Source: Limnobacter parvus (GTDB lineage: Bacteria; Pseudomonadota; Gammaproteobacteria; Burkholderiales; Burkholderiaceae_B). From it: a stretch of 64,000 nt of DNA. The translations under genes were made by a program, and so were the position numbers. The notes under the pieces were generated by a model, which searched no databases, was not told where the DNA came from, and saw only the letters and a list, made by a program, of their open reading frames with translations. Shown here piece after piece: positions 7,655 through 50,515 of this stretch; positions within the stretch are counted from its first letter, which is position 1; every line of letters starts with the position of its first letter. The stretch lies in contig NZ_JANKHG010000001.1 in the NCBI RefSeq assembly GCF_024623725.1, positions 62,001 through 126,000 of the forward strand, written 5' to 3'.

Positions 7655-7787
7655 TTCATCTGCAGCACCTTTGATGCCACGCTGGGCAAAGGTGGCGCTG
7701 GTGGTGGTCGCCCTGTTGGTGATGCTGGGGTATGCCAGCCCGGACATGCGGGCGGTTTATGTTGCCGCTTGGGCTGCTTGCTTTTAA
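7629..7787 (+). CDS. Possible small single-span membrane protein (52 residues)
   Basis: The ATG at 7629 lies inside the last 26 bases of the MFS gene in another frame and opens a 52-residue ORF ending in TAA at 7785-7787. It has a polar N-terminus (MNQQPKQPDSSAAPLMPRW), one strongly hydrophobic helix (AKVALVVVALLVMLGY) and a short tail ending WAACF. The overlap suggests translational coupling with the transporter. Nothing else identifies it, and its 3' end abuts the start of a structured repeat, so it could also be the remnant of a longer gene cut by that repeat. Confidence 0.45.
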   Translation: MNQQPKQPDSSAAPLMPRWAKVALVVVALLVMLGYASPDMRAVYVAAWAACF

Positions 7788-7997
7788 TGATTCGATTGCC
7801 GGGTTGGCCTTGCGCTGGGTCAGCACTGAAAACCGCAAATACCCTTCTTCAATTTAGCTTGCGTTCACCGCACCCCGACAAAAAAGATGGTCGGTGTGCG
7901 GGGTCGCTCTTCGCGCGAACACGCTCGCTAAAATGAAGCGGGGCGGTTTTCTTGAAGTGCTGACCCAGCGCAAGGCCAACCCAGCAACCTGAATAAT
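7786..7997 (+). repeat. Structured double-hairpin repeat, copy A (plus orientation)
   Basis: A roughly 210-bp element bounded by a long inverted repeat. The 27-base arm at 7801-7827 pairs perfectly with 7956-7982; the stem continues with GAAAACCGC (7828-7836) against GCGGTTTTC (7943-7951), leaving TTGA (7952-7955) as an asymmetric bulge. Weaker pairing extends outward to about 7786 and 7997. Inside are hairpin 1 (7868-7901, loop AAAAAAGAT) and hairpin 2 (about 7904-7918). The core GGTTTTCTTGAAG is at 7945-7957. Three further copies occur at 8025-8225, 49965-50212 and 50305-50515. No convincing protein-coding gene lies in it. Confidence 0.8.
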
Positions 7998-8024
7998 CCC
8001 GGTGCTACGCGAGCAACTTGATAT

Positions 8025-8225
8025 TTAGAAGAATTCCGGTTCAAGTTGGAAGGTCTGCGATTCAAGGAAATCTGCCGCCATCAAACTGACAACACTGTTC
8101 ACCGAAGGTGAGAACCCGAACTCGCCCGTCTTTTTTGGCGAGGCGGGTTCAAGTGGTGTCAGCTTTGTATGGCGGGAATTCAGATTTCCAAGCAGACCTT
8201 GCACTTGTCCGGAATTCTTCAAGCG
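8025..8225 (-). repeat. Structured double-hairpin repeat, copy B (minus orientation)
   Basis: Same architecture as copy A, on the other strand. Arms pair as GAATTCCGG (8031-8039) with CCGGAATTC (8209-8217), AAGGTCTGC (8050-8058) with GCAGACCTT (8192-8200), and GGAAATCTG (8066-8074) with CAGATTTCC (8181-8189). Extra bases at 8059-8065 correspond to the TTGA bulge. Hairpin 1 is 8112-8150 (minus-strand loop AAAAAAGAC) and hairpin 2 is 8099-8111. The arm sequences do not match copy A, although they pair within this copy. Its core faces that of copy A, about 115 bp away. It sits between the convergent MFS and lrgB genes. Confidence 0.78.
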
Positions 8226-8235
8226 ACTCAAACCA

Positions 8236-9000
8236 CTAGGCGACCAAGGCGAACATCCACGGAATGAGCAACGCGCCAAATATGCCATGCAGCCCCATAC
8301 CCAAGCTAGCGTAACGCCCCGCCTCCGGGTGAACGCTAAACGCCCTTGCAGTGCCAATGCCATGCGCCGCCAAGCCCATGGTGAAACCCCTCACCCACCA
8401 GCGCTTCATGCCCATGAAATTGAACAGCCAGGTACCCACAGCCGCGCCCAAGATGCCGGTAACAATCGCGAACAAGGCAGTGAGCGTGGGCGAAGCCCCA
8501 ATGCGTTCGCTAACGCCCATGGCAATTGGCGCAGTCACCGATTTGGCCCAAAGGCTTTGAACAATGTCGATGTTGGCTCCCAACAGGTAAGCCGTGCCCA
8601 ATGCGCTGGCAATTGAAAGCCCCCCGCCCACCAACAGGGCCACACTGAGCAACACCAGTGTGCGAATGGTTTGCCCTTTCACTGCCGTCAGCCCTTGGTA
8701 AATGGGCACAGCCAATGCCACAGTGGCAGTACCCAGCAAAAAGTGCACAAACTGCGCACCTTCGAAATATTGTTGATAACTAAGACCTGTAATTTGCAGA
8801 AAACCCGCCAGAAGTAACACGGCGATCATGACCGGATTGGTGAAGGGCTGCTGCCCGCTTTTTTTATAGCACCAAAGGCCTATTTGATAGGCCAGTAAGG
8901 TCAGGAACAAGGCACTAAGCGGGTTACCAGTTAAGTACACCCAAATTTCAGGCAGATCGGCCAAGCGACGCGTCGATTCAATTTGCGCTGGTTCAATCAT
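8236..9000 (-). CDS. lrgB: LrgB/CidB-family membrane protein
   Basis: A 254-residue polytopic protein of the LrgB family, which works with LrgA-type holin-like proteins and has been linked to murein hydrolase control, and in some bacteria and plants to transport of small carboxylates. Seen: about six hydrophobic segments, the conserved stretch KSVTAPIAMGVSERIGASP and the C-terminal GLAAHGIGTARAFSVHPEAG, both typical of the family. The ATG at 9000 overlaps the lrgA stop by 8 bases, so the pair is translationally coupled. The longer frame to 9045 would intrude further into lrgA and is not preferred. Confidence 0.87.
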   Translation of the reverse strand: MIEPAQIESTRRLADLPEIWVYLTGNPLSALFLTLLAYQIGLWCYKKSGQQPFTNPVMIAVLLLAGFLQITGLSYQQYFEGAQFVHFLLGTATVALAVPIYQGLTAVKGQTIRTLVLLSVALLVGGGLSIASALGTAYLLGANIDIVQSLWAKSVTAPIAMGVSERIGASPTLTALFAIVTGILGAAVGTWLFNFMGMKRWWVRGFTMGLAAHGIGTARAFSVHPEAGRYASLGMGLHGIFGALLIPWMFALVA

Positions 9001-9367
9001 TCTTCGATACCTCGCTGACATCACCAGGCATGAACCGCGTGGCAAGGCGATCCAGCAACAGGGCTGTGCCCACCAGGGTTACGACGACACTAACCAGAAG
9101 GCTGATCAGAATGATTACACCGAATTCTGCAAGCACTGGCCAAAACACCACCACCCCCACCGCAGCGGGAACGAACAACAAACCCAGATTTGCTGTGAAT
9201 ACATTGGCCGTGGTTTGAATGTCGACGGGCACCTCGCCTTTCAGGAAAAAGAAGGCGAGCAGGCAAATCAGACCCAAAACCGGACCCGGAATGGACGGAA
9301 AGGCAGCAAAGCTGAGCAATTCGCCCAAGGCCTGAAAAGCAAGAAGTATCGTTAATGATTTAAGCAT
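8993..9367 (-). CDS. lrgA: LrgA/CidA-family holin-like protein
   Basis: A 124-residue membrane protein with four hydrophobic helices: LTILLAFQALGELLSF, IPGPVLGLICLLAFFFL, TANLGLLFVPAAVGVVVF and VIILISLLVSVVVTLVGTAL. The segment PGPVLGL followed by LGLLFVPAAVGVV is the LrgA/CidA signature. Family members form holin-like oligomers together with LrgB. The start MLKSL at 9367 is chosen over 9385 because it gives the usual family length. It is the first gene of the lrgAB pair; the divergent OmpA-like lipoprotein gene begins at 9474. Confidence 0.85.
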   Translation of the reverse strand: MLKSLTILLAFQALGELLSFAAFPSIPGPVLGLICLLAFFFLKGEVPVDIQTTANVFTANLGLLFVPAAVGVVVFWPVLAEFGVIILISLLVSVVVTLVGTALLLDRLATRFMPGDVSEVSKND

Positions 9368-49964: not shown

Positions 49965-50212
49965 GGCGTTGATTGAAAACTCAGTTCGTTGATAGCCCAA
50001 TCGCCGCGAATCCCAACGCTTCGCCTGAAAACCTGTGTTTCCCTTTTTGAAGTTCACACTGACTCACCGATCGCGGCAAAAAAGATGGCCGCGTATCGGT
50101 GTCGACCTATGGTCGAACGTGGCGTGTGAATTCAAACGGGAAGGTTTTCTTGAAGGCGAAGCGATTGGGATATCGCTGCTGATTGGACTGAACGCGACTA
50201 ATGATTGATCAC
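49965..50212 (+). repeat. Structured double-hairpin repeat, copy C (plus orientation)
   Basis: Same layout as the copies at 7786 and 8025. The inner stem pairs CGCTTCGCC (50017-50025) with GGCGAAGCG (50155-50163) and GAAAACC (50027-50033) with GGTTTTC (50143-50149), with a TTGAA bulge at 50150-50154. Weaker pairing extends outward. Hairpin 1 (50065-50101) has a 13-bp stem with loop AAAAAAGAT; hairpin 2 is TCGACCTATGGTCGA (50102-50116). The core GGTTTTCTTGAAG is at 50143-50155. Confidence 0.78.
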
Positions 50213-50304: not shown

Positions 50305-50515
50305 CCAGCAACGATTCAGCCAACTCGGCAGTGGGATTGCTTGTTCCGCACTTCAAGAAAACCGCCCCGTTTGATGTCAATCGCAGCGGTCGGCCAAAAG
50401 CCGACGAAGAATTCGGCCATCTGTTTTGCCAAATTCTTTGAGCAAGGATGAATATCAAAAAGGGATGAAGCGGTTTTCAGTGCGGAACAAGCAATCCACA
50501 ACGAGTGGGCACACG
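50305..50515 (-). repeat. Structured double-hairpin repeat, copy D (minus orientation)
   Basis: The arm GGATTGCTTGTTCCGCACT (50334-50352) pairs perfectly with 50479-50497; GAAAACCGC (50357-50365) pairs with GCGGTTTTC (50470-50478), leaving TCAA (50353-50356) as the bulge. Hairpin 1 on the minus strand is 50409-50436 (loop AAAACAGAT) and hairpin 2 is 50389-50405. The core faces copy C. The region also shows short spurious frames on both strands. Confidence 0.8.

What the first reader, a model, noticed from the sequence alone, without database searches (positions are those of the whole stretch)
7786..8225. Head-to-head pair of structured elements with arms that differ between copies but pair within each
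Copies A and B share a 5'-to-3' plan: left arm, hairpin 1 with loop AAAAAAGAT/C, hairpin 2, right arm with a GAAAACC:GGTTTTC stem and a TTGA bulge. Arm sequences are unrelated (27-base perfect arm at 7801-7827/7956-7982 in A; 9-base blocks in B), yet each pairs internally. Ordinary MITE copies share their terminal repeats, so this pattern speaks for selection on structure, either of an RNA or of single-stranded DNA. The only conserved primary sequence is the loop and the core. I know no named family with this combination, but I cannot exclude one.
Basis: seen in the sequence. Interest (0 to 1): 0.85.

Follow-up and report, generated by a model that had tools for sequence, protein, structure and literature searches.

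The report
Twin DNA-hairpin repeats in Limnobacter
The spot is one of about forty places in this bacterium's genome where large, branched DNA hairpins sit, usually as two unlike halves facing each other between the ends of two genes and tending to point one way relative to chromosome copying, which suggests an undescribed mobile or chromosome-organising DNA element.

Summary
The paired structures at 7786-8225 are real and belong to a dispersed family. A covariance model from 21 copies finds 58 matches at home, 35-89 in four other Limnobacter genomes, and none in 44 genomes of other genera. Over 149 copies 94% of cells pair and 47 of 50 pairs change on both sides. The unit is a pair of branched hairpins: 45 of 46 neighbouring halves are +/-, and 25 of 26 two-half sites at home hold exactly one alpha-armed half. 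By pair, G-T is not favoured over A-C; T-runs are lacking; orientation follows replication (G007, 24 sites, p=8e-6; weaker at home and in G009). That favours DNA over RNA. 31 of 43 sites lie between convergent genes, background 49 of 340. The nearest plan is REPIN/BIME, but its transposase family is absent from 15 of 16 genomes, the host included. I favour a REPIN-like, replication-coupled single-strand DNA element moved by an unidentified enzyme; a polar host role or template-switch upkeep is not excluded.

The parts
7790..7994 (+). Half A: beta-armed branched hairpin (core match 7821-7961)
   Evidence: fold; R1 match 122.8 bits at G000:C1:69821-69961
7880..7888 (+). A-rich apical loop AAAAAAGAT of hairpin 1 in A
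   Evidence: sequence and fold
7952..7955 (+). TTGA bulge of A, on the 3' side of the stem
   Evidence: sequence and fold; TGA in the bulge of 128 of 149 copies
8010..8230 (-). Half B: delta-armed branched hairpin (core match 8055-8196; perfect outer arm 8028-8039/8209-8220)
   Evidence: fold; arms; R1 match 63.4 bits at G000:C1:70055-70196
8128..8136 (-). A-rich apical loop AAAAAAGAC of hairpin 1 in B
   Evidence: sequence and fold
8062..8065 (-). TTGA bulge of B
   Evidence: sequence and fold
49986..50197 (+). Second unit, alpha-armed half (core 50020-50159)
   Evidence: folds; R1 match 151.2 bits
50323..50506 (-). Second unit, beta-armed half (core 50347-50485)
   Evidence: folds; R1 match 142.9 bits
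6398..7654 (+). MFS transporter gene, left convergent neighbour of unit 1
   Evidence: gene call, Pfam MFS_1 3.9e-39
8236..9045 (-). LrgB-like gene, right convergent neighbour of unit 1
   Evidence: ORF, Pfam LrgB 4.9e-68

Best explanation
A dispersed, bipartite, non-coding DNA element. SHOWN: the usual unit is two branched hairpins (184-221 nt in the four window copies) facing each other, normally one alpha-armed half and one half with other arms (beta, zeta, gamma or delta). Most copies keep a TGA-containing 3'-side bulge, a 5-nt 5'-side bulge and an AAAA-led apical loop. Sites are mostly between convergent genes, and by GC skew the alpha half is mostly terminus-proximal. INFERRED: when one strand is exposed, most simply the lagging-strand template at the fork, each half folds and its fixed unpaired bases are read by a protein acting in trans. 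The unit spread as single-stranded DNA in a replication-set orientation, as IS200/IS605 elements do and REPINs may, and was kept where insertion does little harm. INFERRED: copies now mostly stay put; complementarity is kept by selection and/or template switching in the hairpin, and heads are exchanged between copies by conversion through shared arms. The enzyme is unknown.
For: 58 matches at home, 89 in G009 and 43 in G007, 61 in G011 and 35 in G012. Covariation. +/- in 45 of 46 neighbouring halves of host+G009 and 39 of 39 in G007/G011/G012. Alpha+beta in 26 of 26 pairs where both arms fell in those two classes by the stricter rule, 19 further pairs having another or unclassed arm; exactly one alpha half in 25 of 26 two-half sites at home and 43 of 51 in G009. 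Polarity: G007 14 R/0 F against 1 R/9 F, p=7.6e-6; host p=0.0007-0.004; G009 p=0.0004-0.03 by choice of terminus. Convergent: host 31/43, G009 39/58, G007 13/23, background 49/340. By pair no wobble excess. Empty site in 7 of 10 relatives with both flanks of site 1.
Against: No mobilising enzyme found: PF01797 only in G008, PF04986 only in G014, where R1 finds no element, PF00078 in 5 of 16 and not at home, integron integrase above cut-off only in G009 and, in two pieces, G001. No target-site duplication or transposition intermediate shown; sites looked at are mostly shared between species, so recent movement is not demonstrated. Site 1 itself reads R on a contig that is otherwise F, against the polarity rule. 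G009 has many polarity exceptions, and 7 of 51 of its multi-half sites have no alpha half. Counted by cell, G-U exceeds A-C: 198 to 161 in A2, 178 to 67 in A3. The polarity rule was found in these data, and arm classes come from my own patterns.
Confidence: 0.5

Rival explanations
1. A host-used polar chromosome element: the twin hairpins are read during replication or segregation (as Chi, KOPS or Ter are polar signals, recalled), so orientation is selected rather than set at insertion, and convergent gaps are used because they are free of promoters.
For: Polarity. For 8 G007 sites, 15 of 15 comparisons with both flanks found in G005 or G006 have a gap of 480 bases or more; three of these sites were aligned and show the elements, with in-situ arm changes.
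Against: Found in one genus only; empty or partly lost at site 1 in 9 of 10 relatives; single halves exist; exceptions in G009.
Confidence: 0.2
2. Long palindromes kept complementary mainly by replication template switching (quasipalindrome correction) and shuffled by recombination, with no function now.
For: By pair, G-T and A-C mismatches are about symmetric; a head in G009 L279 turned into a near-perfect palindrome; tandem duplication of arms; loss of a half between short repeats in its arms, G009 against G008.
Against: Correction should erase bulges, yet TGA is in the 3' bulge of 128 of 149 copies and the 5' bulge is 5 nt in 118 of 149. It does not explain spread, alpha/non-alpha pairing or polarity.
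Confidence: 0.15
3. An RNA element at mRNA 3' ends (stabiliser, processing site or bidirectional terminator) serving both convergent genes.
For: Convergent sites; the inverted arrangement gives each convergent gene a sense-oriented hairpin. Counted by cell, G-U exceeds A-C in both alignments, though mostly at a few pairs.
Against: By pair there is no excess of G-U: 12 pairs against 28 in A2, 13 against 16 in A3. Longest T-run of 5 or more in 2 of 149. Replication polarity is not expected. Tandem-gene sites also carry whole pairs: 5 in the host, 10 in G009.
Confidence: 0.12

Closest known systems
REPIN / BIME (REP doublets)
   Same: Two palindromes in inverted orientation as the repeated unit, extragenic, many copies, mosaic, single remnants, compensatory changes, tandem clusters (passages of PMC3116915 and PMC6006769).
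   Different: Each half is about 200 nt and branched, not 20-40 bp; the two halves have different arms; RAYT's family PF01797 is absent from 15 of 16 genomes of the genus.
IS200/IS605 ends (TnpA Y1, lagging-strand transposition)
   Same: DNA hairpins read as single strands; insertion tied to the lagging-strand template (PMC6006769 passages), which would give the polarity seen.
   Different: No Y1 transposase at home; halves here face each other; no tnpA or tnpB seen inside the units.
Integron attC
   Same: Folded single DNA strand with extra-helical bases and an unpaired spacer that mark the strand (PMC2727003 passages); a variable head.
   Different: Inverted pairs scattered over the genome, not arrays; bulges on both strands; no integron integrase above cut-off at home; the R-box GTTRRRY (recalled) is not seen in the beta or alpha outer arms (GTTGGC, ATTGGGC).
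Parvovirus-type hairpin telomeres and fungal mitochondrial double-hairpin elements (recalled, not tested)
   Same: Two unlike branched hairpin ends, or mobile twin hairpins.
   Different: No Rep gene seen between the halves here; bacterial chromosome.

Membership tests
REPIN / REP-RAYT | Two palindromic units in inverted orientation form the repeated unit | tested here: met
   45 of 46 and 39 of 39 neighbouring halves are +/-
REPIN / REP-RAYT | RAYT (Y1 transposase) gene in the genome, usually beside REPs | tested here: not met
   PF01797 in 1 of 16 genus genomes, not at home
REPIN / REP-RAYT | Short (20-40 bp) REP palindrome (size from the listing of PMC3733652) | tested here: not met
   Halves are 184-221 nt and branched in the four window copies
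REPIN / REP-RAYT | GTAG or CGTC tag at one end (title and start of abstract of PMC3733652) | not tested
   no scan for the tags was run
Integron attC | GTTRRRY R box with partner (recalled) | tested here: inconclusive
   By eye in outer arms: GTTGGC (beta), ATTGGGC (alpha), so not seen; no attC profile was run
Integron attC | Integron integrase in the carrier | tested here: not met
   Host matches are partial, 79 and 53 bits against a cut-off of 265; 2 of 16 genomes pass the cut-off
Known structured RNA (Rfam 15) | Match at gathering score | tested here: not met
   Only a tRNA in the window; best sub-threshold match in 7700-8300 is Archaea_SRP, 29 bits against 96.5 needed, on the - strand over A
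Intrinsic terminator | Hairpin followed by a run of T | tested here: not met
   T-run of 5 or more within 110 nt in 2 of 149 copies
IS200/IS605-like replication-oriented element | Orientation bias relative to replication | tested here: met
   G007 p=7.6e-6, host p=0.0007-0.004, G009 p=0.0004-0.03
IS200/IS605-like replication-oriented element | Y1 transposase | tested here: not met
   PF01797 absent at home
IS200/IS605-like replication-oriented element | Excision and insertion catalysed on single-stranded DNA | not testable with these tools
   needs experiment

The most novel reading that the evidence does not exclude
A new class of bipartite single-strand DNA element: two unlike, branched DNA hairpins that work as a pair, laid down in a set direction relative to the replication fork between convergent genes, and handled by an enzyme outside the Y1/RAYT, IS91-type, reverse-transcriptase and integron-integrase families searched here; or, domesticated, a polar chromosome-organising signal.
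Probability: 0.35. Interest if true: 0.88.

Novelty: new variant of a known kind. Interest (0 to 1): 0.74.

Why it matters
It would be a REPIN-like system without RAYT, with halves some five to ten times larger than REPs and normally unlike each other, and with replication polarity visible from sequence. That makes two questions directly testable in Limnobacter: how hairpin repeats spread, and why they lie between convergent genes.

Tried and rejected
RAYT/IS200 as mobiliser: rejected for the host. IS91-type Y2 transposase: only in G014, where R1 finds no element; that search rang in none of its 14 control genomes. Reverse transcriptase: absent at home. Integron attC: no integrase above cut-off at home, R box not seen by eye. 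Rfam family: none. Intrinsic terminator: no T-run. Insertion into the loop of an existing terminator, giving host-derived arms: the empty site 1 in relatives is short (about 12 nt between stops in G012, read by eye) with no such arms. Cassette carrying cargo: a few pairs enclose genes, too few to be the rule. Viral carriage: no exact match of a 22-base core pattern in viral contigs. Literature: Limnobacter+palindromic gave 2 papers, judged unrelated from the listing only; Limnobacter+repetitive+intergenic gave none; one search on REP polarity gave one unrelated paper; the double-hairpin search was of no use. I found no report of this family in those searches; most subscription papers are not held. 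The tRNA wobble control failed: only 5 distinct tRNAs.

Full report
What is there. The window lies in a 3.18-Mb genome. Copy A folds from 7790 to 7994 (+) and copy B from 8010 to 8230 (-), far better than shuffles (z -13 and -9.8). A second unit lies at 49986-50197/50323-50506.

Family. 21 copies gave alignment A1 (31 of 50 pairs with a change on both sides) and model R1. They came from the 20 loci of a BLAST search and were kept only with a TTTTCTTGAA-type right motif and a left GAAAACC motif, so A1 leans to the two commonest arm types. R1 finds 58 matches at home at E<=1, the last two being the two strands of one palindrome. With stricter filters 12 of 60 genomes match, all in the genus: 12 of 16 there (2 to 54 matches each), 0 of 44 elsewhere. 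Of the four without, two are only 85% and 65% complete. Searched again two at a time, G009 has 89, G007 43, G011 61 and G012 35.

Structure. On 149 copies from host and G009 (A2), 94.0% of cells pair, 47 of 50 pairs have a change on both sides, and the covariation score is 0.556 against 0.170 shuffled and at most 0.072 slid. A2 was fitted to the model, which leans it towards the structure; relatedness also inflates counts. Unpaired parts are kept: TGA in the 3' bulge of 128 of 149, a 5-nt 5' bulge in 118 of 149, an apical loop starting AAAA in at least 139 of 149.

DNA rather than RNA. In A2, G-U cells number 198 (84 at one pair) and A-C 161; 12 pairs favour G-U and 28 A-C (sign test p=0.017). 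In A3 (92 distinct copies of G007, G011, G012) G-U cells are 178, 136 of them at four pairs, and A-C 67, 24 at one pair; by pair it is 13 against 16. RNA selection tolerates G-U but not A-C (established knowledge), so the count by pair speaks against RNA, while the count by cell does not; no RNA control could be run.

The unit is the pair. Within 600 bp, 45 of 46 neighbouring R1 halves in host+G009 are +/- and one is -/-; in A3 39 of 39 are +/-. By the stricter arm rule all 26 pairs with both arms classed alpha or beta are alpha/beta; 19 pairs had another or unclassed arm. A third head and arm type, zeta, missed by R1, was modelled from 13 of 15 pattern matches (R2) and gave 34 matches in the host and G009 regions, two of them the two strands of one site. 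With it, 25 of 26 two-half sites at home have exactly one alpha half (12 with beta, 12 with zeta, 1 unclassed); the exception is site 1 (beta/delta). In G009 43 of 51 multi-half sites do; 7 have none, one of them beta/beta by this looser rule, and 1 has two. 17 of 43 host sites and 10 of 61 G009 sites still show one half.

Place. 31 of 43 host sites lie between convergent genes, 11 tandem, 1 divergent; one gene-enclosing unit counts as two sites. G009 has 39, 18 and 1 of 58, one match without a gene on both sides left out. In G007 the gap holding the match is convergent in 13 of 23 fetched loci. Background: 49 convergent of 340 gene pairs in 400 kb of the host, used for all three. Fisher p is 9e-15, 5e-16 and 9e-6. 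Gene calls are from my own script.

Replication polarity. In the single-contig G007, by GC skew of fetched pieces, all 14 scored sites of the first replichore have alpha on the right and 9 of 10 of the second have alpha on the left (p); gamma halves were not scored and not every G007 site was fetched. With the leading strand G-rich (established knowledge), the alpha half is terminus-proximal. Host: contigs with positive skew 9 R and 7 F, negative 2 R and 18 F (p=0.004; 9/4 against 2/18, p=0.0007, without C7 beyond 400 kb, where skew was not mapped); C6 was left out as unclear, and the gene-enclosing unit again counts twice. G009, 55 informative of 61 sites: 21/7 against 7/20 with a cut at 1.50 Mb, 21/10 against 7/17 at 1.77, 21/12 against 7/15 at 1.95 Mb; skew suggests the latest cut, the weakest. 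Site 1 is an exception.

Evolution. Of 10 relatives with both flanks of site 1, 7 have a gap of some tens of bases, G008 has both halves, G001 and G009 have B and only arm remnants of A. At site 2 G009 lacks a half that G008 has, with the break between near-identical short repeats, read by eye. Eight G007 sites were sought in G005, G006 and G013: both flanks were found in 15 of 16 cases in G005 and G006, gaps 480-690 bases, and in 3 in G013, one of them about 130 bases. Three sites were aligned: heads are exchanged while arms stay, and arms change with pairing kept. Arms form tandem arrays, and one head has become a near-perfect palindrome.

Machine. None found: PF01797 only in G008, PF04986 only in G014, PF00078 in 5 of 16, integron integrase above cut-off in G009 and G001. 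Other recombinase families were not searched.

Judgement. The plan is REPIN-like (passages of PMC3116915 and PMC6006769), but the defining RAYT is missing and the halves are large, branched and unlike, so I do not file it as a REPIN. I favour a replication-coupled single-strand DNA element; a polar host role and passive palindrome upkeep remain open.

Noticed in passing
L015:351-1419 (host C8:130029-131097) and L187:1548-2499 (G009): Two genes lie between an alpha and a beta half: an NlpC/P60 protein (Pfam 1.6e-16 in the host) and a lipoprotein-like protein with no Pfam match in the host; the arrangement resembles an amidase effector with its immunity protein (recalled likeness).
   Followed up: partly
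L188:1426-2588 (G009:C1:2842725-2843887): A Peptidase_C92 (YaeF/YiiX) protein and a secreted-looking partner without Pfam match lie between two halves; the same place in G008 has halves, the left one of another type, but no such genes.
   Followed up: partly
L279:2565-2693 (G009): A zeta head has become a near-perfect palindrome, as expected from template switching.
   Followed up: no
L111:3889-4044 (G005), L238:4530-4623 (host), L192:1381-1524 (G011): Tandem arrays of an outer arm, 20-44 nt period, beside the hairpins.
   Followed up: partly
G009:C1:2438434-2439375 (L492); partial or broken ones in G001, G014, G008: A full integron integrase in G009 and partial or broken ones in relatives: perhaps an old chromosomal integron largely lost in the genus.
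   Followed up: no
G000:C7:533162-533315: An R1 match on both strands: a nearly symmetric hairpin.
   Followed up: no
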